A DNA stretch of 64,000 nt from Ischnura elegans (lineage: Eukaryota; Arthropoda; Insecta; Odonata; Coenagrionidae). The notes under the pieces were generated by a model. It made no database searches, was not told the origin of the DNA, and saw only the letters and a program-made list of their open reading frames with translations. The position numbers were made by a program, and so were the translations under genes. The stretch lies in contig NC_060247.1 of NCBI RefSeq assembly GCF_921293095.1, forward strand, positions 48,147,111 through 48,211,110, written 5' to 3'. This document shows, piece by piece, positions 10,701-64,000 of the stretch; position 1 is the stretch's first letter; every line of letters begins with the position of its first letter.

Positions 10701-13700
10701 TATTTGGACTCCCGAGAAAATTGTCTATTCAATGAGATTTACTAGCATGATGAGCAAATTTCATGCATGTTCCCCATTGTGCAAAATCAGAATTTGATCT
10801 GAGGTTTCCGCGGTGTTTCTTCATATGAGTCTTGGCTTCCGGGCATTCCTCCGCGTTTAGACTTATGGACATCTAAACGCGGAGGAACGCCCGGAAGCCA
10901 AGACTCAAACTCAGAATATTTCAAGCGGCATCGCAGCAGGAAGTGGGACCTGCAGCACTAGGTATGTGGAATGGGGAGAGAGAGACAGAGGCGGGCATTG
11001 CCATGTTTTCTCAAAAGACTTAGTCAGCTAATGGAAACGAAAGACTGTTTCAAAAACCCTCTTCCCACTTGGCAACACAGCTAACTTATTCTAGAAGTGT
11101 ACACCATGGAGGTCTGACAGCGACTGGATTTCTCAGAGGGATCTTCCTCCGACATTTCGGTTGGTTTTCAGGTAGTCACGTGCCCTCCTGACCCCCTGAA
11201 CCTGACCCCCAAAAACCTTGGGCCTATCCATCCACAGTCACTTTTTAAAGTAAACAATGAAAATCTAGGAAGACAGAGCACAGCCATGTCTCATTTCTTT
11301 CTTCATTCTTGCTTCTTGACAGCTGGATCCAGAAATGCATCAGCTTACCATAGAAAATTAATCTCCAAAACAGTGCAGATAGAAGTACTCACTCAAGAAT
11401 GCTAGAAAATAGGGCGTTTTCAAAAATACCAATAATCCAGTCAACTTGAATTCGAGTTCACTAGATGAGGAGAGACAACGACCTCTAATAACAATTTATG
11501 AACTACCAAAAATGGAAGAGACATTTTGCAGTATTTGCAGAGTTTGAATTTAAGAGCATTGAATTTTCAATAGTATCCACAGTACCGAAGTCATTAACAG
11601 GGACTTCTAATTGTCTCATTAGTTGTAGATAGTTCATGAATTGGCATTGGAGATTGTTGCCCTATGTCATCAAGTGATCTTGAATATTAGTGCTTTTGAA
11701 TAGAGCAAAAAGACACAAATCAAAGAGAATCAGGAGCAGTCCAGGAGTAATCAGGAGTCCATTATAGGCTAAAGTTTTCATAGTGTATAATTTTATTTTA
11801 TCATTACAAAGAAAATAGTACACTTACCTTTGGATGGTAGAATTTGCAGTTGACATTTGTGCACTTAGGGTAGAATTTACACTGCAATGGTGCAGGACGA
11901 GGAGGAAACCGGACAGGAGCTAAAGAAATTAAGAGTTCATGTAAGGCTACCGGAAACCAAATTAGAGGTTAAATAAAGCCAGATCTAAAAGCCACAGTAA
12001 CATTAGAAACAGACAATATTTAGTAAATAGCAGATTAACAACCATCTTGAATGAAAATCAAATAAAATACATAAATTGAAGTTATGCACCCACCTGGAGC
12101 AGGAACTGGAGCTAGAGATCGAGGCATAGCATGCGTGAAAGGACAATCCTTCCTTGAGCAAGCAGCATCAAATTTGCAATTGGGATGGATATATAAGCAC
12201 TTGTCACCAAATTTGCATGATGGGAATGCTCTGAAAAGACAAATAATACAAGAAACAGCATTATAACTTAATGCAAAATATAGGTAAATTGCAAAGATAT
12301 GTATTCAAGTAACAAAACTTCATACTATGCTCCTATAATTTAGGCTATTCTTCCATATCCTCTAAAGGTATGCTGAAACTCTCACTTGAAGTCATAGTTA
12401 CCTAATCATAAATACATTACAAATTACTTAAAACTCTTGAAAGAAAGTCATTGAGAGGGAGAAAAATGTCATATTTGATCTTTTGGAGGTACCAAATCAG
12501 CAAAACTTGAAGCTGGGGCAGATAAAAGATTGTGAAATGCCAAAATTTATTTCAACTATGTTCCAAAAATTTCATCACGAGTATTCTATATAAGGCATCA
12601 TAAAAATATTAAGGCACTCAATAAATAATTCATGGATAAAATATTCATAGCAGTTGATAAATAAAAACTGAGTGATAGGTGTTACCAGTACACTTATTAA
12701 GGCAATAGTCTAAGTGAAGTGTAATGATACTGTAAGACACAATGAAGTCTAAAACATAAGTGAAGTCTAAAGTAAAAGTCTCCATTCTCTCACAAGGGGA
12801 GTGTTACAAAAGTGGGTCTCAGGTTTCAATCAAACTTTGTAGTGTTATAGTCCTTAGGGAGCTGTCCATGAATCACCCCCCATTTGGGGTTATATAACCA
12901 ACAGTTTATACAAAATACGCAGTTAAACATTTACAGGTTCATTATATTCCCTCATTACAACTAGGAGTGGTACTCGGTGGTTACGGTATTTGACTCCTAC
13001 CTAGAAGTTATAGGTTCGATTCTTGGATGCGACAATTTTTTTTATAAGTTGTTTCTACTTTTCAATTTACATAAGTCTTCCATTCATCATTATTTCAATG
13101 ATTTTCGATGAAAATTTTATTTTTCTGCGTGGAAATCTTTTTCTACGATGCGGAAGCGTCAGCTGTTTTCCCATTTTTTTTCGCCTAGTTTCCTTTCCTT
13201 TTCGGTTTCAATTACATTATTTTCGTGTCGCAACACAAAACGTTTCCACAACACACATTTTTTTAATTTTAATTATTTGACTGTAACTGAAATATAATTA
13301 CTCAAAGAAGCATGAATATATTCCACTACTTGCGGTTTCACGACTCCTATTGGCGAAGAACTACCCACACTGGAAGATAAAAACATCAAAACTTGCGCGC
13401 GATTCAAAAGACATTAACTAACATTTTTGTGCCCTATCCCCTGCGATAAGGTATGGATACAAGTGTTAAAAAGGCTAATAAATACAGTCGGATCCGGATT
13501 TAACGTCTTCGCATTTAACGTTTTTCCGCATTTAGCGTTTATTTTTTTGGGTCCCGATTCATTCCCTATTAGGACAATGTAAAAATTATCCGTATTTAGT
13601 GTTTCCACATTTTGCGTTTTTCCGCATTTATGGTCGTAAAAATTTGTCCCGCTCAAGATTTTTTTGCCCGATTTAACGTTTTTTCATGACGGTTCATCCA

Positions 13701-16700
13701 AATCTTCGAATTTATGCTCATCAACAAGAACAGTTTCATGAAAGCTTACCAAGAGTCGATAGAATCTACCAGGGAACGCTTCTTCAACTGCTTTCTTCCG
13801 CGCTGCGACGGCTGCGACCTTCAACTCGCAAGCTGGGTGATTTGTCTTCTCGTAATGTTTCGCTCCCCTTCTGATCCAAACACCAGGCACTTTTTGTATC
13901 AGATCCGATCTAATGGAGCAAAGTCATCCCTTAATAACCTCGAACTACCTTATCCTTCACTTCTTGAACTTGACTTCGATGATACGTGACGACTGATGAC
14001 ACGAGTTATCCTCCGAGGGCCGCTACAATAATGGTTTTCTCGTTATGTTTTCAATTGATGGCTTGTGCCCTTTTCAACTCTACTACCTACGGGCAGTCGA
14101 TTATTAGCCCAATATTTTTTCAGTCGGCTACTTTCTCTTTTCAAAAGAGGAGGCCCAATATCAATTGCGCAGTTCACTAGAAGATTCTTTCTATAATCCA
14201 TTCCAAGGTCAGTTTCCACGGAGGAACAGCGAAAGAACCGAGGAAGTGTTTCCCCTGTCGTGATCGTGAGTGATAGCATTCTTTCCCTACGGAACAACAT
14301 TATTTTACATCGTAATTTAGATATCCCGGAGCCAATTTACCGACATGCGGCTGGTTGATATCGATGTCGATTCAAAAATATCTATCTGGTGCTAATTAAT
14401 GTCAAAAGATAATGACAATCGGAGTTTTGACGAACTATCACGGTCCATTACTCAAAATAAATCGCTCATGCTGGAAAAAAATCACCGCATACTCACGGTA
14501 GAATAGATGAGCGCGGAAAAATACGAAAATCCGGCAGGTATCCCTTGATGGTTGACTTCGACATCATAACCCTGACGAAATTGCCAAACTCCAGAGGCAC
14601 TGACAATTTTTCGGATGAAATCCAATTCTGTTGAATATTAAACCTTTTCACTTAACAGAGTTAAGCTAATCGTCATTCAAGGTCCAACCAAATTTTATTA
14701 AAAGCTGCCGAGAAACAAGGCGAGTCGGAGTCAAGGTGATCAGCGCGCCGCGTAAGCAACTTCTCGCGGCTCCATTCGACCTGCATAAGGCCGCGGATAT
14801 ATGACAACGAATCTGGTGTTATCATCGTGTTAAATCACCATCGACTTGTACGCATACTAGAAATAAGATTCTACTTTTTTGGATGACCTCGAAATCCAAA
14901 ATGTGTGCATAGGAGGCTTTTTAAAGGCTCATAAATCCCTTGTTTCGCCGAGGCAACAGAAAACGTTAAGTTGGCAAAATTCCAGAAAACCTCCGTTTTA
15001 CTAGATATTCGGTAGTTTATAATTCGAGATTAGCGATCATCTGCTGTCCCTTTATTTCACTCATCTTTAATGACGATTTTTTGAGTACCTACTTACACCT
15101 TTTCTTATTATATTAGAAATGCTATAGTCACCTACAGGTCACTTTTACAGAAAACATTCTAAATTTCATCGAGATCACTGAATAGGGTAGTTTCCTTCAT
15201 CAAAGAAAACAAAAGGCAATAATTGCGATTCGTTACCCACCATTAGTGTATTCATAATATACAAATTATTTCGTTTTATAAATGCCGGTGTAGACGAATG
15301 GCAATGGTCCATTTTTATCCTCATTTGAAAAGGGCCAGATTGGCGCCCATGCGATGCCACTCCACGTGACGTCACAGGGACCTAGTTTCTATAGGAGAAG
15401 ATAGGAGTTATACGTCGTCTGAGGTTACCAATGCATGCATGAGGCGCAGAGCTCAGGGAAACATGTCTTAATAATCAATTATTAAAACTGGCTAAGGTCG
15501 GAAAGTTTTCCTCGTTTGATAAGGTACTAATAATCCTTATTTAAGCCAAGCGCTACCAGGCGGCAGGGCACTAGGCTACCCGCTGGCAGCCTGCGACGTA
15601 TCAGCGCTAAGCCTCGCCTCAAGGTCACCTCACCGGGCGGAGGGGGAACCAGAAATACGACGTACGGAGAGATTTCCCATCATTCCTACTAACGCGTCGC
15701 GTTTTCGCGCGCTTGAAAATTTTCACTTTTCATTTAATCGCGAAAAATAGATATTATCATTTAAAAATCTAAGAGCGTGAAATACGTACTCCAGGAGTAA
15801 TAATCTTTCGATTAAGGCAATAAAAAAATAATAGGAAACCACCCTATTATGCATAAAAATGGAATCACTAATGCGCACAGTAATAATCCGTGTGGGAATG
15901 CTTTTAAGTTGATGTTTATTAGAATTTTCTTAAAATATTTCATTAAAACAATTGTCATCCTCTCATTACTTATTTTTACTACCCATTTTTTTAGCCGATT
16001 CCTGAAAAGTATTATCCAACCTTCATAGGGCAGAGAACATTTCATTAAAGAATTTTTTGCTGCATTCAGCACCTTTTAGGTACTTGAAATAATATTTTTT
16101 ATTCATAAAAAGCCATTCCAATCATTACAGACCCTAAAACCTGAAAAAAATGGCAGGTCCTCATTTAGTGTTTGTCTGCATTTAGTGTTTTTTATTTTGT
16201 CCCCCCTGAAAAACCTTAAATCAGGATTCTACTGTATTTTTGGAAAACGACTGTTGAAATCCGAAGAAGACCAGCCAGGGAGGGAAATGTGTCTTCTTCC
16301 GGAGTTCTGGGTAGCCACCCATTTTTTCTGCGAGTGGTCACTCAACTGTTAACAAACCATCAATTACTAGAGGCTCCCCAGAGGCATCTTGTTGGTATAT
16401 TATGCTTTTACCTCTCCCTGAAAGAGAATTAGCAATTCTTACACATAAAACATATTGCTTCGCAGTCATCATTTTCCTTTCTAAATGCGTGTAGTGCAGA
16501 AATTTCAAATAATAAAGAAATAAAATTATAAAAATTAGGCTGAAATTGTAAGAAAAGACACATGGCAACAAAAAAGGAAACCAAGTATATGTGCAACGTA
16601 AAAATGCTTTGTGTTGCAACACAAAAATAACGTAATTGAAACTAGGTCCCCTTGTGAAAAAAAAAATGGAAAACAGCTGACATTTCCGCATTGCAGAAAG

Positions 16701-19700
16701 ATTTCCACGCAGTAAAATAAAATGTTCATCAAAAATCATGGAAATAATGATGAACTGAAGACTTACGTAAATTGAAAAGTAGAAACAAACTTTGAAAATA
16801 AATTGGTGCGTCCAAGAAACGAACCTAGGACTTCCAGGTAGGAGTCAAATACCGTAACCACAGGGCTACCGCTTATAGTTATGTAGTAACATCTTATTTC
16901 TAAGGGAATATGATGAACCTGTAAATGTTTAACTGCGATTTTTGTTAAACTATTGGTTATACAACCCCATATGGGGGGCGATTCGTGGACAGCTACCAAA
17001 GGACTACAACACTACAAACTTTGATTGAAATCTGAGACTCACTTTTGTGACACTCCCCTTGTCAGTATCAGCTTTTTTCCACCCCCAGAAATTTCTGTCA
17101 CATAACTAAAACCTTTTCCCTACTAAAGACGAAAACATACGTGTGGACATTTCTAGACCCGGGAGACGAAAGCCGCATATTTTCGTCGGAGGTTTTCTTA
17201 CGCAAATGAACCAATGCCGAACATATACGTTTCCTAGCTCTCCTCCTTTTATAATGGTCGGGGGTGTAAGACATCTTTGTTTCGGGACCCAACACTGCGG
17301 GGTTTAGGCTTTACCCTCGAAATTCAGGAGCAAGTACCCGGACCCCTCGTCTCATATTACCCCTCTAAGCGGTAAGGGTCACACAATTGTTTATCCAGTC
17401 AGGTTTTGAAATAAACATTTCTTCTTTTCTCAAGAAATATAAACTATTAATTGAATTCTGAGACAGTAAAATGGAATTTTGAGACAGCAAAAATTTGTAT
17501 CAAATCACAGCTGCCTGCAAGCATAATGACACTGACCAAAGAAAATATGATTGAAAAACCAAATAAATCTGAAATAAGGCTTCCTGGATATTGTAGAATC
17601 AGTATTTTTAATTTTTAGGGAGAAAAAAATCTATACATAACATTTTTTCACGGGAGTAATCATATGAATCACGTGAAATATCCTGTGTACTGCCAAAGGC
17701 ATGAAATTTAACATTGCCACACAATGATCAATCATTGAAAAGTAGAACCAAAAAAATACATACTAAAACTAGTATGGTGACTTACTTGCAGGGAATAGTT
17801 GGGTGGTGATATTCACACCTCTCACCATGTCTGCAGGCAGGCCAAAATCTACACCTCTCTGAGATTTTTGGCTTTACTGCTGATTCCACCTCTTCTACAA
17901 TGAGATCAGAAGATAGCAATGAGTGCAATGAATTCCATAGGAAAATAAAATTAAAATCATAGCTAAGAAAAAAACATAAGAGGAAGTATAAAATTTACAT
18001 CCACCCCATGCACCATGAGATTACTGAAGCTTAAGGAATATGGATAAACACTGGGTAAATACCATATTTCATGGTATATAAGATGTACCTTATTTTTAAA
18101 TAATATCTAAAAAAGATCACCAGCGTTTTACAGGTGAAGACTTGACACCATGGGTTAATGTTCAATACTAACATCATTGTTTTTACAAATATATTTTTAT
18201 ATTCAATCAAAGAATGTTGAAGTTGTTATTGTAATTATTAAGCTCATTGCCATAATGTGATGTTATTTATCATTTATTTATTATAATAAAAAATTGCTCA
18301 ATACCATACAAATCAAATTTTATCCATGCTATTTTGCTTCAAATAGTATATGTTAACGTTTGCTTTTTCAAATAACAACTTAACAAAATATGTATTATGC
18401 TTCAATTTTGAAAAATAAATTCAGTATATTATAACAAAAAACCAACAGTATTGCAATCCGTGATCTGCCTGAAAAAAAGTATGTTACTAAGGTTCACATT
18501 TCAGCATATGCTCACAGTTTGATAGATTTTAAAAATCCAATAATGACCATGCCGAGTCATCTGAAGCAGGTAAATATTTAAACATAGTGTAACTATGTTT
18601 GTTTTGCTCAAATGTATGAATTATTTTTCCTTTCCTTTTCCTTTAAACCTCCAATTCTGGATGACTCTTTATTATGCATATTTTATAATGACTAACAAAT
18701 TATTAAAAAATTAACTTTGAAACTATATCATTCCATAAAACATACTAAAATTTTTGCATGTTAGGTGAAAATAATGTTTCATTTTATGAGACGACATTGA
18801 AGATATATGTCACCAAATTCTACCTGCTGTAGGATCGAAAAATAGGGCTCTATATTTTTAATGTAAATGCAAGAAGTTATCAAAAGATGGCAAAAAAATA
18901 TTATACTTCAATCATCAAACAAAATGTAAAACTACCTTTCCCCTGATGCTTGTTTGGGTTAATGTGCAAATTTTTCACTGAGAATTGTCAAACTGAAGGC
19001 GCTTTAATTTTGAACAAGACAGTGTCTCTCCAGGTGCATATTGTTTTCTTGTTAATCCAGTTAAAACATAAATGTATTTCATTTTAGTGAAGCAAGTTCT
19101 CGAGTAGCATGTGTAGTCCTCCTTGAGACAGTGAATGTATCTGCCATCTACTGTAGAGAAAATGGTGCTACGTAACCATTTAAGTAATCTGCATTGGAAA
19201 AAATTCAGAAAGAAGCTTCACAAGATACTCCAAATTAGACAAAGATAAACTACTGACACTCAGAATGAAGGAAACATATGAATAAAATTTACGCTGGCCA
19301 ACACCAAACCTGTGAAAACCATGGAATATGCACTTGGAAGAAGACTTTCCATGGATTTCCCAAAAAATTGGGTGGGTCTGAAATCCTTAACAAAGGAATA
19401 GCCTTAATTAAGTACAGTAACTCCTCGACATACGAACAATATGCATTCCGAGACCATGTTCGTAAGTTGAAAAACCTATGCAATGCCTCGAAAAGTGTGG
19501 TTACCCTGCAGAATGCAACACTGAATTACAAATTGCATCGTTAATTAATGCAAATCGGTGTGTCTAGCTCTGCGTGTGATGTGGATGGAGGCAAAAAATT
19601 TTCACTGTCCTCAGGAAGGAAGAACGTGGGAAATGATGAACAGTTACCGACTTCAGAACGGTTTAAATTTACCCAATACTTTGTTTAGATTGCATCCAAA

Positions 19701-47700: not shown

Positions 47701-50700
47701 CTTTCCCTCTCAACTAGTTTTCAATGTTAACAAGACAAGATTGTTTTGGAAAATAATGCAATCTCATTCACTCATTGTCAGGGAAGAAAAATCTGGTTAC
47801 ATGGTTAATAGGCAATTCGATACCCAATCTGTACCTATGCTACTGGAAATACATCCCTATCTTCCCAATGTTCAAATGGTCTCAAATAACACAAATTCGA
47901 TAAGTGCAAAGACCCCAAGGAACACATCCCTTGCGCTAAGCGAGACATGGGTGTACAAAACAGTAATGTAAATGACAAATCTCCAAAATTAAGGTTATAA
48001 ACCTCAATATAACCACGGAATACAATCACTTAAAACCGAATTCTTCAAATAAATGAAATTACATAATTTATTATGTGAATTGAATAAATTATCCATAGCA
48101 GAACTCCAAACCTACTATTTTTCTTCGGGTAGATTTCATTCATTAATAAATGTTGAAAAGAATACACTTTTTTGCTATAGCAAAGAGGGCAAGAAATTGC
48201 AAATCTTCCAACTGCATGTTTTTCTCAATTGGATTTGCAGCCTTTTTAATATAAGAGAAGGGGTTATTTTGACACCTTCCATTTATGCATTTTTGAATGG
48301 ATTTTTGCAAATTACAGTTTACCCAATGCATTTTGAAGTGTCAATTTGTATGCACATTAGACTGAGCAACTACGTACCTTGTGTATAAGATACTTTATAG
48401 GAATCAGCTTTTTCTGCCCATTCAGTTCATATAACGAGGAAGTCAGAAACAAATCCACAAGGGTATTGGTGAACATGCTCTAAAGTTAACACAACAACTC
48501 ACGGGTAGTTGAACTGAATGCACCCTTTATCAATACTTCATTTCAATGGATACTCACAGGTGACAGCTGGAGAAATGACGGATGTTCAATGATGGCCTCT
48601 GCATGCTTATCAAAAAATGTACAACACATTTGTGTGAGACCATCCAATTGGTAAAGACGAGCAGCATCATAAATGGCACCAACATTTCGTATCTGTAGAG
48701 CTTCCCTTAAATGGTCAGAAATAGAAGCTTCCAAGTCCACAAATCCATACTGGTGAGCCAAACCTAGCATATCCAGTATCACATCTTCCTGCAAGCAAGA
48801 TTCAAAGCCAAACATAAAAAATGAATCGATTGGGAGATACAAAAACTTAAAAAGTTCCTTAACAACTTTAATACTACAAAATAAAAAACAAATTTTAAAA
48901 CCGAACCAGCCCGTTTTCTGATTAACTTCATCCAAGAAAAGAATCGCCTACTGATTGGCTACTAGCTCTCTACCACCCAGATGTCAACAGTTGGGAAAAA
49001 GGGTATAAAAACTTCACAAAACTTCATATAATTTCGTGTGGCTATTAAATATTCTATTACCAGTAATATTTTCCAGTGGATTACACTGGAGTCACTCAAA
49101 ATACAGTGGAACCTCGATCTACCGTTTTTCAGGGGGGATGGATGAAAAAAAACGATGAATGCGGGAAAATGATGAATGCGAGAGTGTTTGACCAGGTTGC
49201 CTACGTCCCAGGAAACGCTGGATTTTTGCGAATTATGGTATTTATTAATGGATTCAAACAAGATTTTAGCTGATTACAGGAATATTATTACTTTATCAAA
49301 ACACTTGGGTCATATTGTTGATTCGACTAATATCTCTTTCAAATATCCTAAAGGAATACGCCACCTTGCTAAAAAAAATGTTTGCACTCCACTCGGCATT
49401 TTCACTGCTATCATGGATTTCTGTCGGATTTAAAAATTCTTATCCATCAAATGCCATTTCAAGTACACATATTTACGAGAGCAATGTGCATGTTATGCCA
49501 AAAACAGCCGCTTTTGCCGATGCAGTGAATGGTTGTGAGATGGATCAAAAAGGCCAAAAATAGCTTATTATGTATTTGAAATGTTCCTTTATAACAATTA
49601 AATTTTTAATGTGATTGAGGCTATGTGTAAAGCATTAACAATATTGCATTAATCGTCAGCGGCACGGCACTATTTCCTTGCTTAAAATGCTTAAAGAACG
49701 TTAGAAATATGTCGTGTTCGGTATAATTATTTTTTGAATTACGTGCACATTACTAATATTTCCATCTAATAAAAGTATAATACCAATTGCCGAAATTCAT
49801 TGTTAGACACCTTTTGGGCTAATAGGTGATTCATAGGCTGAAAAAATTCAGTGGTCGAGAATCGGAGAGGCGTGAAACATCAATCTGTTGTTCTCGTGTA
49901 ACTTCATATTTTCAAAGCTAAGGTCTTTGTAATACAATCCCCGCACAAGCTGGGACCTTTTTTTTTTCGGAGAAGAGGAAAGCTTCAGAGGGGGGGGAGG
50001 AGGCGAGTGCTGAATGGAGGGGGATAGCGGATCTTGGGAAATGCACTAATGTAGCTATCCCTCGCCACTCAGCTTCTCCCTACAGTATTTCAATCTCCTG
50101 GGGATTCAAACTATGTGTCTGTCATTATTAGCCACAAATAACACGTTGTAAACACTTCGTCTCATTTTCGTCAAACGATGGATGCGGGAAAATTATAGGA
50201 CGGGACCCCGATCTTCAAACGATCAATGCGGGAAAACGATACTTTGGGGAATGATAGATGCGAAAAAAAATTACATTGTCTTTATGGAACTTAATTTGGG
50301 ACCAGGAGCGGCAAACGATGAATGCGGGAAAACGATCAATGCAGGAACAATAGATCAGGATTCCACTGTACTGCAATTGTAAGGTAAGGCAAAGCCAACA
50401 TGATTTGGTTCAAAGAAATGTTGATGCCCAAGCTGAGTTTCAATAATTTCTCTCCCATGGTGCCCCAAACAATTCATAAATTTGGTCGACAACCTATTGT
50501 TTTTGTAATATTTATGCTCAAATGAAATGTGTTCATACAAAAGTTTATCTATTTCCTAGGTGAGACATGGGTGAAAACATTATTCTGAAAACTGTTGGAA
50601 GAATTGGTAGTTGGATATTTAACGCATTGTCATACTGTGATGCATATCACTGAATTTCCCCAGAGCAAGAGTATTTATATACATAGTTTGAAAATTCCAG

Positions 50701-53700
50701 GTTATATGACAACATTGCATGTAGACAATTTTGGAAGACATAGGTCTTCAAATAGCCCCAGAGCTGGCCACATTCATATGCCAATAAGCTTTGCAATAAT
50801 TTTGTCCCCCACTGTACATTATGAAGTATAATTGGGTTTCAAATACCTTTGCAGGTGGAGAATTATGGCTAAAGCAAGAGAAGGAGGGTAATTTAAGCAA
50901 GCTTGAACACTGCCTTCAGGCTCCACTGATTGTAGAGGGTATTACTGAGAGAAAGAAACATAACCAAATCAGCAATGACTTGGGGCATCAAAATGTGCAT
51001 ACACACATCTACTTGTTTAAGGAGAGATATGAACCACGGATATCATTAATCAGGTGTCAAGTCATTGTGTAAAGGTCCTCAATTAAAGATATGAGTGGAT
51101 AATCCCCTCTCAGCAGCCCAGAAAATGGTCAGTCACTCAGCTGAAACCAGTCCCAAAGGGAGTGAAAGGTATACCAGTACAAAACTTAAAAGAAGGAATG
51201 AGTTATAACATGGATTCAGATGGAAAAACAGCAAAGGTAAGAGCATCCATGGAATATGTTCCACATTTGATAACACAATTATTAGACTCACGAAGAACAC
51301 AACACAGAGGTCTGAGAGCAATTGAATTTTAGAGGCACCAACCTACGACTGTTGTCATCTAATTGGCCGTGAGAAAGTCATGAACTGAGAAGCTTTCCCT
51401 CCACCAACCCACACTTGTTTCAGCCTAGGCTCCTAAAACACTACAGCTACGTTGATAATCAAATAACACATGGATTAAGAATTTTTAAAAATTTATTTGT
51501 CAAATGGCAACATTTGACAATTAATCAGTTTCTAACGCTTTATCTTATCCTATCTTCAGTTTTGCATACATATGCCTGAGCCTCTTCATGAGTCCCAAAA
51601 ATCGTCATCAGTTTGACTCAAGAATAAATTTCTAATACAATGGAACCTCAGTTGTGTGATGCTCCAAAGAAAATGTTGTACAGCAGACTCCCGATTATCC
51701 GGCTGCGGTTTATCCGTGTCGCGGATTATCTGTGCATGATGTAGGTTCGAAGATTTTCGCGGCGTTGGTTAGATGATCTTTCCATTCTATTCGGGTTTTT
51801 TCACTGCGTTTGTTGTATTTTAACAGTTTCGCTGGCATTACAGTCAGTGTCTTCAGGTCGAAGGTGAAATTTTTGGAAAAATTTTCCGCCTTTTATAGGC
51901 ACAAAATTTTCAGCCTTATATAGGCGGCACCAACAAAAACAAGCAGCACCAACTCTCAGCCATATCTGAGCATGCTTGGAGTGAACCTGGGCATAACATC
52001 CTCTTTGAAGACGCTAGGATAATAGCTAAAGAGAATAAATACTTCCCTCGCTTGATCAGAGAAGCTATTGAGATAGCGAAAACGCCCGCAAATTTCAACA
52101 GAGATCAAGGCTACAGCTTGCATACTGCATGGAAGAGGATTCTCCGACCACCAACAATGAGAGATGAACAACCGGCCAATGAGAGAGCAGCAGCGGATCA
52201 GCAGCCGCAGCCGCCTATATAAGGCTGAAAATTTTATGCCTATAAAAGGCGGAAAAATTTTCCAAAAATTTTACCTTCGACCTGAAGATGCTGACTGTAA
52301 CGCCAGCGAAACTGTTGTCTTTAAAATACAACAAACGCGGTGAAAAAAACCGAATAGAATGGAAAGATTATCTGTGCATGAGTTCACACTCATTCCATTT
52401 TTTCCGCTATCTTTACAAAAAATAAAATCAGATGCAAGAGCACCAGGATAAATGCATTTAAATGAAAGGCTACATCAAGCTCATCATTTCCATTTGAATT
52501 CCCTTCATTAAATGGAATTATTTTCTTTACTTGACATCAAGGAAGGTTTCAAGTCTACTTAGATGTCTGCTTCATTATTGCAGACCACGATCAATCGTGG
52601 GAAATAAAAACTCTCGATTAATTTTAGTAGATACTTCGATGGTTTACCAAGATAAATGTACTCCACGATTATTTTTTATTGTAAATTTCATATCGCAAAA
52701 GCACAATTACTGCCGTAGCATCGCTCGCGGTTAAATACAGCCCAAGGGAGCCGGAGATTTTGTCGCACTTGGGCATGTTCATGCCACCACTAGCCTCAAA
52801 CTGGAGGGAAAGGGAAAAGTAGAAGTGAAGGTAGTGGGTGGGGGGGAAGCATAAGTAGAGATAGCATGAGTCATAGCTGTTGCCCTCAAGGCAGTTCTGC
52901 ATTCCTGTTTTCCAAGCATTGCGGTGCGCGATCGCGCTCAGTGATCAAGGAGCCGCATCCCACAGCATTTGCATCCCAGGCACCTTGTGTGAGACAGGAT
53001 TACGCGGTGTGGTGCCTGACTGTGTAATTTCCGTTGTCGCGCAGCAGTTTTGAAGCATTCATACAATCCAGTTTTCTAACTCCGTGACCTCACAGCTGCA
53101 GTTGCATGGTTTTCGGAAACCAGGTATTACATGAAGCAATAGGAATATCAGTACAATCACGTTATTGTCGGTAAAAGATTGCGGTTAGGAAAATAAAACT
53201 CTTAAATATTCCGGAAAGTAATATAAAATAACAGAAAATGTGCATGATTAATTATAGACTGTTTGATTTAGGAAAATTATGAAAATTACAAGAAATTAAT
53301 GAAAGTGAAATTTTGGATTACATATTCGTGTTTTCCATTTATTCGCGCCTCTTCTCTCCATCATTAGCCCGTGTAATCAGGAGTTTGGTGAATAAGTGTG
53401 AGCATCATACAACTGAGAACTCTTGCTTCAGGAATCCTATTTACTATAATTTCAAGATAATTTACATATGACACTATTCCATTTTCAGATCTCTGCGGTA
53501 TAGAAATAAATGTCCAAGATAAATTTAAAAATTTATTAAAAAACATTCACTTTATTCTATAGAAGTACTTATTTTGTAGTCTTGCAAAGTACTGATACAA
53601 ATTTTCTCTAAAAAAACTAATTAAACAAAAGAAACAAAGTTTCCACACTTCTTTAGCATACATGCAGAAAAAATATGCGCTTACTTTACCTGGTACTTTT

Positions 53701-59956: not shown

Positions 59957-60448
59957 CAAAGCAAAAATTTAACACAGCCGTGGAAGAGCGGAAATACTAG
60001 CTCACGCGCCCGGCACACGTCAATGCCGAGCAGTAATTCCGGTGACTCATCGCAACGCATTAGACAGCTTTATTGGATAACTTGCCAAAGGAAAACCTTG
60101 AGTGTGGTTCGAATGTAACAATTCTGTTGACTGAAACACGGCCGCTGGCTGGGAAGGGGGCGCCGTTCACGGCACGGCCCACAGCTTCGCAGAGAGTCGT
60201 CTCGTCTGAAAGCGGCCCGAAATTCACAGCGTCGTGACGTGAACAGTGGCCAGCGAAAAGTCATTTCATCAGAAAGCGGCCTCAATGTAGCACTGCCTGT
60301 ATTTCACGCCGTAGACAGCGCACCGCCGGGCCGGATTTAAATGGGCACCAAGGTGACCACGGCACTCGTCAACGGCACGATTTGATTCGTTTAAAGACAT
60401 CCATGGACTCGTATGGTTATTTGAAAGCACGAAGCGAAGTTGGGGAAA
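59957..60448. other. GC-rich spacer between R3 copies
   Basis: Between 60120 and 60330 the DNA is GC-rich, with GGCCGCTTTC-type words repeated on the minus strand (two copies of a GCCGCTTTCWGAYGARA motif about 70 bp apart). It resembles the end region of another MITE, but the boundaries are unclear. Confidence 0.4.
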
Positions 60449-61178
60449 GGGTCATTCCATATCAAATCAACCAATATTTTGACCAAATGACACCCACCGA
60501 CTCGGATTTCCATGAAACTTACCATGGTCATACATTTTGGTATGATTAGAAATTGTGTGCAAATTTAGCCTCCAATTGTCATTTGTTAATGAAATATGAG
60601 CAATTGAAATTTGAGCATGACCCCTAAATTGCCGCAACGTGCAACACATGGTGATTTTTATTTTCATCCATAACTCCATTCCTGTGAGATGAAAAGACAT
60701 GATTTTTTTTTCTAAAGCTAAGGAGTCCATAATGATCCCACGATTGTCATTAAATATTCACTGCATGAAGTAAGTCAGCTGCAAAAAAATAAAGTTGACA
60801 AAAAAATCTCGCTTGTACCATTTTTGATTGTGAGCATCCACAGGGAAAGGCCATGCGAATACAGACTCATGGTTCAGTTTAAAATAATCATTAATGTATG
60901 AGCAAAGATCCTGATGAAAAAAAATCGTGAGTCCGGCGTTCCTTTTAGTAAAAAAAAATTCTCATTCATGGTCACGGGAAAAAATGGCATTTTTTTCAAA
61001 GCACATGGAAATTACACAATTTAGAGGAGATATAAGCTTATATTCATGATTAAAAAATATTGGAGCATGCATTATCTCACTATAGTGTACGCTACTGGCT
61101 CTTACAGTAGGAAACACATAAGCAGCCATGTCAATGTACTCCCCCACATACTGCTAATTTCGTGTTATCAGGACTATT
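60449..61178 (+). repeat. Long repeat R3, copy B, likely terminal inverted repeat
   Basis: Direct copy of 59222-59956. It extends a few bases further than copy A (ATCAGGACTATT), and this extension is also present in the inverted terminus at 63976-64000 (ATCAGGGCTATT). That makes copy B, not A, the better partner for the right-hand inverted repeat. Confidence 0.85.
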
Positions 61179-61595
61179 CCTACTATCTCTTCCATGGGTA
61201 ATGGGTAACTGAATAGTATGGTATAAAATATAAAGGCAGAAGAGAGCCATCAGAAAGTTTTCTCCAATTTCAGTCCCAGTGAAGTTAATTAATTTCTTCA
61301 TTAATTTCTCATTTATATGGTGCTGCCTTAGTGATATCCTGGTTGAATTTCAGACTAAGTAACTAATGTTAGTGCGTCTGATAGCCAGGCTTACGTTGTA
61401 ATATCTCTTGTTCGTATCAATGAGGTCTGTCTTCAAAGTACATATTTCATAATAGCAAAACAAATGAACTTCTCAGTTCTCTCTGAAAATATTCAGAACA
61501 CCATTATCTATGTTTTAAGCAGTCAATCACAAGTAAGTACACCTATCTGAATATCAAACATTGTAACATTCAAGATGTACCTTATGAAGGAGTTA
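61179..61595. other. Non-coding stretch between R3 copy B and MITE T2 copy 2
   Basis: AT-rich, no recognisable frame or repeat. If 60449-64000 is one transposon, this would be its left subterminal region. Confidence 0.4.
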
Positions 61596-62138
61596 CAGTG
61601 GAACCTCTATCTATTGTTTTTCATGGGAATGGACAAAGAAAAACGGTGAATGCTGGAATGTTTGGCTGGGTTGCCTATGTTACAGGAAACGCAGGAATTT
61701 TTTTTGCGAGTGATTATGATATTCATTACAGGATTCAAACAAGATTTTAGCCGAATACAGAAATATTAGTACTGCATCGAAACACTTTGGTCATATTGTT
61801 GATTTGCCTAATATCTCTTTCAAATGTCGTAAAGGAACACGCCACCTCGCTAAAAAATGTTTGTACTCCACTCGGCATTTGCACTGCTATTATGGATTTC
61901 TGTCTGATATAAAAATTCTTATACATCAAACGCCATTTAAATACACGTATTTACGAGAGCAATATGTATAGTGTGCCTAAAACAACCACTTTTGCCGGCG
62001 AAGTGATTGGTTGTGAGATCGATCACAAAGGCCAAAAATAGTTTATTATTTGAAAATTTCCTTTCTAATAAATATATTTTTAATATAATTGAGGCAATGC
62101 GTCAAGCGTGAACAATGTTACGTCGTCAGTGGCACGGT
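61596..62138 (+). mobile_element. Pogo/Tigger-like MITE T2, copy 2, 3'-truncated
   Basis: Begins CAGTGGAACCTCTATCTATT after TA and follows 49104-49680 at about 80% identity (shared GGATTCAAACAAGATTTTAG, TAATATCTCTTTCAAAT). Similarity stops after GTCAGTGGCACGG, so the right half and right terminus are missing. Confidence 0.75.
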
Positions 62139-62689
62139 CACCTGATCCTCGGCTTCATCCCACTTCTTTTCACATGATAGCTCGCTCCACCCCTACCCCG
62201 AACGTCATGTGCTAGCGGACAGCCCGAGGCGTTCTGCAATATCCACGCACTTCTAGCTCGGATTCTTTTCTTCATCTTCAATGATTTTGAGCCCATATTT
62301 TAAAGTTCCTACTTGTTCCTTCGGAAGGGCCATGATCAGAAGATAAATAAAAATAAAACTAATAAAAATGAAACCGGACTTGATTAAACCCACACGGAAA
62401 ACACTCGCTGGCTTGAAGTCAACACATCCTGGAAAGTACGGAACTACTTGTACGAGGTGAAGTTTGGAACTGATGCTATCGCGTACGGCGTACGCAGAGC
62501 ATACTGCAGTGGGTGAAGCATGACCATATGACTGCGCCATTAATTATTTTTGTCCTTCAGAGAAGGGAACTTACCCACTCATTGCTAAGTAGGGTAGCGC
62601 CAGATGAGCTGATGAATTCGGATTACTAGTGGGGAGAAATAAAGTATCCGGAGAAGATTTACCTTCGTCAGTTACTCTGACAAGTGAGA
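62139..62689. other. Stretch upstream of the transposase-like remnant
   Basis: A minus-strand frame of 95 codons at 62253-62540 shows no known motif. No N-terminal exon of the transposase-like gene could be recognised. Confidence 0.4.
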
Positions 62690-63611
62690 CTTAAAGTATA
62701 ACTCGAAAGTATACTCTCACTACCTCATCTCATTGTTTCATATCTGATGACCTTAACCATGATGTGGCCTTTGTTATGGAAGTGCAACGCCACCTGATAG
62801 AATTTTTAAAGAGAACTTCGCCGATGATCCAAGAAGTTCAGTACTTCACAGATGGATGTGCTGGGCAATATAAAAACTGCAAGTCTTTTTTAAATTTGTG
62901 CCATCATTATAATGACTATGGCATTAATGCAACCTGGTCTTTTTTTCCACAAGCCATGGGAAGTCTTCTTGTGATGGTATAGGTGGTACAATTAAACGAA
63001 TGGCGAGGAAAGCCAGCCTGCATCGCCCAATGGCACAGCAAATAACAAACAGCAGCGGGATGTATGAATTTTGTAGAGATAATGTGAAAAACATCAACAT
63101 CCATTACATTAAGTCTAGTGATGTGGCTTGGTCACGTAGTAAACTTCTTGAAAGATCCACCAAGGCAAAAACAATTCCAGGTACAAGAAACTTCCATCAT
63201 TTTGTGCCTTTATCGGATAGAAAAGTTGCTGCAAAGTTCACTGGCCTGGATGATGAGTACAGCATTATATTTGATTTTTGTTCCGTAACAGTGGATTTCC
63301 CAGATAATTTGGTTGTTGGTTCATATGCAGCTTGTATTTACAGCATGCAGTGGTACATTGGAGTAGTGGAAGCTCTCAACCATGAAGAAAGTGATATTTC
63401 AGTTAAATTCATGACGCCTAAAGGACCCTCACCTTCATTCTCTTGGCCTGAGAGAGATGATGTTTGCTGTGTGCCACTAGGACACATATTGTGTGTGCTT
63501 AATTCTCCTGCAACTACAAGCTCTGGGAGGTCATACTACTTCTTGAGGGAGGAAGTGGACCACATTAAAAAAATATATATAGACTTTGTGAAAAACACTA
63601 AGACATCTTAG
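62690..63611 (+). pseudogene. Frameshifted transposase-like gene of an uncharacterised invertebrate family
   Basis: Frame one reads HCFISDDLNHDVAFVMEV, VQYFTDGCAGQYKNCKSFLN and LCHHYNDYGINATWSFF. After a run of seven T at 62940-62946 the frame breaks. Another frame continues STSHGKSSCDGIGGTIKRMA, then the open stretch to the TAG at 63609-63611 with KFMTPKGPSPSFSWPERDDV near its end. One extra T would join the parts, so a 1-nt homopolymer deletion is the simplest break. I recognise the D-G-C-x-x-Q-[FY]-K-N ... SHGK-x-x-C-D-G-x-G-G-T-[IV]-K-R pattern from unannotated proteins repeated in insect and cnidarian genomes. It looks like an RNase-H-fold DDE-type core, but I cannot name the superfamily. 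No start codon or N-terminal DNA-binding domain is visible. Confidence 0.65.
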
Positions 63612-63709
63612 AATGTGATCAGCCAGTTAAAAAGAGGAGGCTCACTTTCAAATTAATTGGTAAGGTTGTTTATTTAATTGTACTGTTTCTACCTAAATTT
63701 CCAATGATA

Positions 63710-63775
63710 TAGAATCACTAAATGAAACATTGAAAATAAGCATAGAATCACTAAATGAAACATTGAAAATAAGCA
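63710..63775 (+). repeat. Two tandem copies of a 33-bp unit
   Basis: TAGAATCACTAAATGAAACA followed by TTGAAAATAAGCA is repeated exactly at 63710-63742 and 63743-63775. Located 100 bp after the transposase-like stop. Confidence 0.95.
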
Positions 63776-63975
63776 TTAGTGTGAAGTACCTGAAAGATTT
63801 CTCAATTCAAATGATTTGATGACAGTTCCCTTTGACATTCAATAATGTACATTCCTGTGATGTCAATACATCTAAATATGAAATGTATCTGGTCTTTGGA
63901 CTAAGATTAAAAGGAATGTAGAATGTGTCTACCATGGCTCATGCAGTTTTTTTAAATTAAAACTCCCTCTACTCA

Positions 63976-64000
63976 AATAGCCCTGATAGCACGAAATTAG
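63976..64000 (-). repeat. Start of an inverted R3 terminus at the window edge
   Basis: The reverse complement reads CTAATTTCGTGCTATCAGGG then CTATT, matching 61154-61178 at 23 of 25 positions. The remainder would lie beyond the window. Confidence 0.75.

What the first reader, a model, noticed from the sequence alone, without database searches (positions are those of the whole stretch)
60449..64000. Candidate unclassified DNA transposon with roughly 0.73-kb terminal inverted repeats
Repeat R3 copy B (60449-61178) ends in a 25-bp sequence that reappears inverted in the last 25 bases of the window. Between them, on the plus strand, lies a transposase-like remnant of a family known to me only as uncharacterised proteins in invertebrates. 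Very long inverted ends around one DDE-like gene would define an autonomous-type transposon. The 0.73-kb ends would explain why GGGTCATTCCATRTCAAATC repeats are scattered as solo copies, such as copy A.
Basis: partly seen in the sequence, partly recalled or inferred. Interest (0 to 1): 0.78.

Follow-up and report, generated by a model that had tools for sequence, protein, structure and literature searches.

The report
Long-ended transposon with truncated transposase
The end of this window holds one copy of a recently active cut-and-paste jumping gene with unusually long mirror-image ends; this copy keeps only part of its transposase, while full-length relatives with an open frame sit elsewhere in the same genome.

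Summary
Sequence past the window continues as the reverse complement of R3 and ends exactly at GGGTCATTCC, giving a 4248-bp element with ~0.73-kb inverted ends. All ten gene copies at 96-100% identity carry R3. Target duplications are exactly 4 bp in 14 of 20 end pairs (chance 1.0), and one insertion has 40 paralogous empty sites among the 40 matches scored.

The window copy is not autonomous. It keeps only the last ~300 residues of the transposase, frameshifted here, with ~1.5 kb of unrelated sequence in place of the rest. Cousins elsewhere are complete: 5050 bp, 909-bp ends, an open 874-codon frame and nearly the same first ~50 bp. Low-confidence models place conserved aspartates 523, 608 and 649 where an RNase-H-type transposase needs them.

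A 4-bp non-TTAA duplication, DDD-like core, long ends and 5-kb length match printed descriptions of the Sola superfamily, but no Sola sequence was available to test membership. Pfam, NCBIfam, PHROGs and PDB sequences give no convincing match. Most likely: a new family of a known kind.

The parts
60449..61178 (+). Left terminal inverted repeat (R3 copy B), 730 bp; left flank GAAA
   Evidence: Pairs with L009:5087-5807 at 96.4%; same terminus in eight complete copies
61179..62700 (.). About 1.5 kb between left end and gene that did not match the sister copies compared. Part of it (about 61590-62140) is another repeat, also at 49102-49670; its start looks like a pogo-type end (name recalled)
   Evidence: L029 element 732-2258 has no match in L013, L017, L025, L041; 1142-1689 matches window 49102-49670 at 83-86%; parts of 1141-2020 match L026
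62695..63611 (+). C-terminal ~300 residues of the transposase, in two overlapping frames (62695-62982 and 62928-63611) because of a frameshift; six of eight complete copies have one 305-codon frame
   Evidence: Frames; matches L038 protein from residue 563; status per copy
63709..63776 (.). 35-bp direct repeat, the two copies overlapping by 2 bp; also seen in L033, L035 and L036, and in part in L037
   Evidence: Self-comparison; BLAST pieces
63976..64000 (-). First 25 bases of the right terminal inverted repeat, which continues 696 bp past the window to C2:48211806; right flank AGAA
59222..59956 (+). R3 copy A: left end of an older subfamily, left flank AGAA; possibly the outer left end of a nested pair
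   Evidence: 97.8% to the left end of L025; flank equals the right flank of the window element
59957..60448 (.). Fragment of an unrelated high-copy repeat between copies A and B, cut at both sides
   Evidence: 39 other copies among the 40 scored of 1461 candidates; L052 and L053 extend past it on both sides

Best explanation
A non-autonomous copy of a cut-and-paste DNA transposon family. Relatives that carry a complete open frame (5050 bp, e.g. L038) encode one protein of about 870 residues: an N-terminal part with several Cys/His, a helix-turn-helix-like stretch near residues 250-290, an RNase-H-like catalytic core with aspartates 523, 608 and 649, and a C-terminal barrel-like domain. The protein is inferred to bind the ~50-bp terminal sequence shared by the subfamilies, to excise the element and to insert it at a staggered cut that leaves a 4-bp duplication. 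The R3 subfamily arose when an element of this kind lost the first ~560 codons and gained other sequence; it then spread as near-identical ~4.2-kb copies, moved in trans by a transposase of the same kind. The leftover C-terminal frame is a passenger. Most likely superfamily: Sola. Shown: ends, duplications, an empty site, copy similarity, the deletion, relatives with an open frame. Inferred: catalysis, binding site, movement in trans, superfamily.
For: Ends and length; eight complete copies of 4211-4256 bp, 97.7-99.5% alike; 4-bp duplications in 14 of 20 end pairs, other lengths 0-2 of 20, shuffled 1.0; empty site for L036 in 40 of 40 scored matches; near-identical 5050-bp relatives L038/L039/L042 with 874-codon frames and duplications CAAC, CACT, TAAT; shared terminal ~50 bp; R3 copies match the protein only from residue 563; conserved D608 and D649 in 10 of 10, D523 in 6 of 6 homologous rows that reach it; RNase-H-like order of strands in two models; changes among young copies look neutral.
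Against: Models are of low confidence (mean pLDDT 55.5 and 66.2) and D649 lies in a poorly modelled stretch of the second; no PDB structure match reaches E 0.001. Six of 20 end pairs lack a perfect duplication, the window copy among them. The older copy L025 has E in place of D523, as a decayed copy may. No Sola sequence was on hand. No activity or expression data.
Confidence: 0.75

Rival explanations
1. The family belongs to a DDD/E transposon superfamily that is not Sola and is not yet described. It works the same way (4-bp staggered insertion, long ends) but its transposase has a separate origin.
For: No convincing match in Pfam, NCBIfam, PHROGs or PDB sequences; protein motifs and terminus not found with transposons in the paper library.
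Against: Pfam is not known to me to hold a Sola model, so its silence is expected; duplication length, DDD-like core, end length and size all fit Sola.
Confidence: 0.2
2. The 305-codon frame of the R3 subfamily is not a leftover but a working short protein, for instance a repressor of transposition that binds the full transposase.
For: The frame is open in 6 of 8 complete copies.
Against: Five comparisons of L029 with other young copies sum to 6 synonymous and 37 non-synonymous changes, as expected without constraint; copies are so young that an open frame is expected anyway.
Confidence: 0.07
3. R3 and the gene are unrelated: R3 is a separate repeat that happens to flank a broken gene.
For: R3 occurs without the gene, as copy A and as short elements made mostly of ends (L002, L011).
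Against: 10 of 10 near-identical gene copies have R3; duplications lie just outside the R3 ends; the L036 empty site joins exactly there; L038 has the same architecture with other end sequence.
Confidence: 0.01

Closest known systems
Sola superfamily (Sola1, Sola2)
   Same: DDD transposase, 4-bp duplications, ends reported from 11 to 1124 bp, 2-9 kb (PMC10741241, passages); a Sola2 protein of 888 aa with AT-rich 4-bp duplications (PMC3627910, passages); Sola1 elements of 5445 bp on average in bivalves (PMC10294476, passages)
   Different: Sequence similarity to a Sola transposase not tested, none on hand; the Sola2 elements in PMC3627910 have short 12-21 bp ends
Kolobok
   Same: 4-bp duplication; termini of the form RR...YY (PMC9587614, passages); here GG...CC
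   Different: Kolobok duplicates TTAA only; 0 of 14 perfect duplications here are TTAA. Its C/DxxH motif is present in 1 of 10 aligned relatives
piggyBac
   Same: 4-bp duplication
   Different: TTAA only and 5'-CC...GG-3' termini (PMC10045372, passages); here GG...CC and no TTAA
Ginger1 and Ginger2
   Same: 4 bp, or 4-5 bp, duplications (PMC10045372, passages)
   Different: Integrase related to Gypsy retrotransposons; no integrase domain found here by Pfam

Membership tests
Sola | 4-bp target duplication | tested here: met
   14 of 20 end pairs perfect at 4 bp, chance 1.0
Sola | DDD transposase | tested here: inconclusive
   D523/D608/D649 conserved and placed as in an RNase-H core, but models are of low confidence
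Sola | Ends of 11-1124 bp and element of 2-9 kb | tested here: met
   730-bp ends in 4248 bp; 909-bp ends in 5050 bp; range from PMC10741241
Sola | Sequence similarity to Sola1, Sola2 or Sola3 transposases | not testable with these tools
   No Repbase or Dfam protein on hand; the founding paper is not held
Kolobok | TTAA-specific duplication | tested here: not met
   0 of 14 perfect duplications are TTAA
Kolobok | C/DxxH between second and third catalytic residues | tested here: not met
   At the conserved C624, 1 of 10 rows has CxxH
piggyBac | TTAA-specific duplication and CC...GG termini | tested here: not met
Ginger1/Ginger2 | Gypsy-type integrase core | tested here: not met
   No integrase domain among Pfam matches
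Autonomous element (the window copy) | Complete transposase frame | tested here: not met
   Only residues ~563-856 of the relative are encoded, and the frame is broken

The most novel reading that the evidence does not exclude
An undescribed superfamily of DDD transposons with ~0.7-0.9 kb inverted ends, a conserved ~50-bp terminal recognition sequence and a ~870-aa transposase that no family model searched here recognises; it would be active now or very recently in this genome, with three near-identical open-frame copies that drive a swarm of end-only and part-gene derivatives.
Probability: 0.18. Interest if true: 0.75.

Novelty: new member of a known kind. Interest (0 to 1): 0.42.

Why it matters
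A genome with three near-identical open-frame copies (two of them differing at 2 of 5050 positions), clean 4-bp duplications and a clear shared terminus gives a system to test how a transposase with very long ends recognises and cuts its element, and how part-gene derivatives come to outnumber complete copies. As far as I recall, transposons of this type have hardly been studied at the bench. If the family falls outside Sola, it would add a superfamily to the eukaryotic list.

Tried and rejected
Relatives were sought in viral contigs, in one genome per prokaryote species and in phages: none confirmed. The terminus was sought in viral contigs: none. Papers: the 11-base terminus or its complement is in 53 papers, of which I saw a listing of 20, none on transposons by title; the 12-base terminus together with 'transposon' is in 0 papers; six protein motifs in 0 papers; a search for Sola with arthropod groups listed 15 of 165 papers, nothing of use by title.

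Considered and dropped: that the retained frame is kept by selection. Considered and left open: that copy A and the right end are the two ends of one older insertion. AGAA pairs them, but the right end of the window element is young-like throughout, with no difference from the young majority in its first 81 bases, so a crossover would have to lie near the tip. An empty-site search for L032 found only the locus itself, so it says nothing either way. A first count of duplications (13 of 18) had left out L016 and L022; the recount is 14 of 20.

Full report
Copies A and B of R3 are at the stated places and the last 25 bases of the window invert the inner end of copy B. The window lies at C2:48147111-48211110 of a 1.72-Gb genome. 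The stretch past base 64000 continues as the reverse complement of R3 for 730 alignment columns at 96.4% and stops at the same terminal base. The element is 4248 bp, L009:1560-5807.

It is a repeat family with clean ends. The gene search scored 150 of 1341 candidates and listed ten copies at 96-100% identity, the next at 84%. I fetched all ten. Eight are complete and contiguous, 4211-4256 bp, 97.7-99.5% alike; their two ends are 97.4-99.5% alike in ungapped columns, with 20-32 gap columns. L034 has both termini with extra sequence inside one end, and L030 has the left end but no right terminus was found in the stretch fetched.

Duplications. I took each plus terminus followed by a minus terminus in the 53 loci held, and three pairs split over two loci, leaving aside for the moment the pair formed by copy A and the right end of the window element. 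Flanks repeat perfectly at 4 bp in 14 of 20 pairs, at 2 bp in 2, at 6 bp in 1, and at 3, 5, 7, 8 or 9 bp in none; shuffled partners give 1.0 at 4 bp. The six misses at 4 bp are the window copy (GAAA/AGAA), L035 (ACAT/ATAT), L013/L014 (GTAC/GTAT), L012, L017 and L022; whether the two ends in L012 and L022 belong to one insertion is not known. None of the 14 is TTAA. For the L036 insertion, the joined flanks with one AATA match 40 of the 40 scored places (of 4233 candidates) at 94-97% across the join, each reaching 25-36 bases past it: paralogous empty sites. The same test for L032 found only its own two flanks, and for L033 the tool did not complete.

The window copy is a derivative. Relatives elsewhere in the genome include three nearly identical 874-codon frames (L038, L039, L042). 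L038 and L039 differ at 2 of 5050 positions and each has 909-bp ends identical to each other; L042 differs from L038 at 15 of the 5016 positions held. Their duplications are CAAC, CACT and TAAT. Against the 869-aa protein of L038 the young R3 element matches only residues 563-856. Decayed sister copies with R3 ends, L025 and L041, still match residues ~254-856 and, weakly, parts of the N-terminal region. So the R3 subfamily lost the first ~560 codons. Between its left end and the gene lies about 1.5 kb (732-2258 of the L029 element) that did not match the sister copies L013, L017, L025 and L041; 1142-1689 of it is another repeat, present at 49102-49670 of the window. In the window copy the remaining frame is broken (95 and 227 codons); L037 is broken too (91 and 239), and the other six complete copies keep 305 codons.

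The remaining frame looks like a passenger. L029 against five other young copies gives in sum 6 synonymous and 37 non-synonymous changes (the broken L009 and L037 were left out, and the comparisons share L029, so they are not independent). Between R3-ended subfamilies dN/dS over the C-terminal piece is 0.41-0.50, and to L044 or L038 0.17 and 0.21 with synonymous sites near saturation.

The protein. No library gives a convincing match. Pfam gives sub-threshold hits, among them helix-turn-helix models at residues ~250-295 (E 0.0016 at best) and MRP-L20 (E 0.0005) for L038, SBE2_M for the window piece (E 0.0081), and DUF7033 in 1 of 10 relatives (E 0.0008). NCBIfam has nothing below E 0.08. PHROGs gives a family of unknown function and DnaD-like loaders at E 0.0007-0.015 over the same helix-turn-helix stretch. 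PDB sequences give no hit for the full L038 protein and none below E 0.08 otherwise. In relatives from this genome D608 and D649 are present in 10 of 10 rows and D523 in all 6 homologous rows that reach it; L029 has lost that part. The decayed L025 has E at that place. Two models (mean pLDDT 55.5 and 66.2) give the order strand 517-522, strand, strand, helix 579-596, strand 602-608, short helices, strand 633-639, then a helix that starts at 647 or 651. D523 follows the first strand, D608 ends the fourth, D649 lies at the start of the last helix or just before it. That is the RNase-H-like arrangement of DDE/D transposases (established knowledge, recalled). Structure matches are weak, none in PDB at E below 0.001: the first hit of the full model is a chain of a CAST transpososome (E 0.0031, probability 0.35, a poor superposition), followed by Endonuclease V, herpesvirus terminase nuclease and Argonaute; the catalytic fragment gives Endonuclease V and Argonaute first. 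Unrelated proteins are in these lists too. The viral library gives a bidensovirus DNA polymerase, a herpesvirus packaging protein and a foamy virus RNase H as its first three. The C-terminal part matches Tudor and Agenet domains weakly.

Termini. Between subfamilies whose proteins are ~43% identical, the first ~50 bases stay nearly the same: GGGTCATTCCAT, then CCAGG(C)CATGACACCCACCGACTCGGATTTT. R3 left ends have a longer variant between these blocks. I infer that this is the transposase binding site. A 25-base pattern of the terminus has 823 matches in the genome and none for the reversed control.

Copy A. It belongs to the older L025 subfamily (97.8% to its left end) and is followed by 492 bp of a high-copy repeat that is cut at both sides. 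Its left flank AGAA equals the right flank of the window element, while copy B's own left flank is GAAA. A nested insertion followed by recombination between two right ends would explain both facts; the right end is young-like throughout, so the crossover would have to lie near the tip. I treat this as suggestive.

Classification. Kolobok and piggyBac duplicate TTAA (PMC9587614, passages), which none of the 14 perfect duplications is; Ginger carries a Gypsy-type integrase (PMC10741241, passages), not found here. Sola is described with a DDD transposase, 4-bp duplications, ends of 11-1124 bp and 2-9 kb (PMC10741241, passages). The fit is good, but similarity to a Sola transposase could not be tested; I hold Sola at about 0.75 and a separate superfamily at about 0.2. 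That the remaining Repbase superfamilies make duplications of other lengths is recalled, not looked up for each.

Noticed in passing
L040:2150-6401 (C19:1274800-1281200): Two copies of an 878-codon relative lie head to head as a palindrome; the stretch held matches its own reverse complement at 99.5% over 4.25 kb. An inverted duplication or an assembly artefact.
   Followed up: no
G000:C14 (18.8 Mb): About 59 of about 150 listed gene matches (counted by eye, some being two pieces of one copy) lie on this one contig of about 1% of the genome; possibly a sex or repeat-rich chromosome.
   Followed up: no
L034 with L047 (C8:114822800-114829300): The body of this copy is inverted relative to the two terminus types, as if it had flipped by recombination between its inverted ends.
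   Followed up: no
window:43301-48947, minus strand: Exon-like frames with an F5/8 type C match (below Pfam's cut-off) and two BACK matches: probably a BTBD9-like gene (name recalled).
   Followed up: partly
window:59957-60448: Fragment of a high-copy repeat of at least 1.1 kb, with 39 other copies among the 40 scored, one of them 93% identical and 25 kb away.
   Followed up: partly
window:9-428 with 15178-15605; 12789-13245 with 16602-17065; 51771-51928 with 52210-52373: Other inverted repeat pairs, 84-94% alike, possibly further transposon ends.
   Followed up: no
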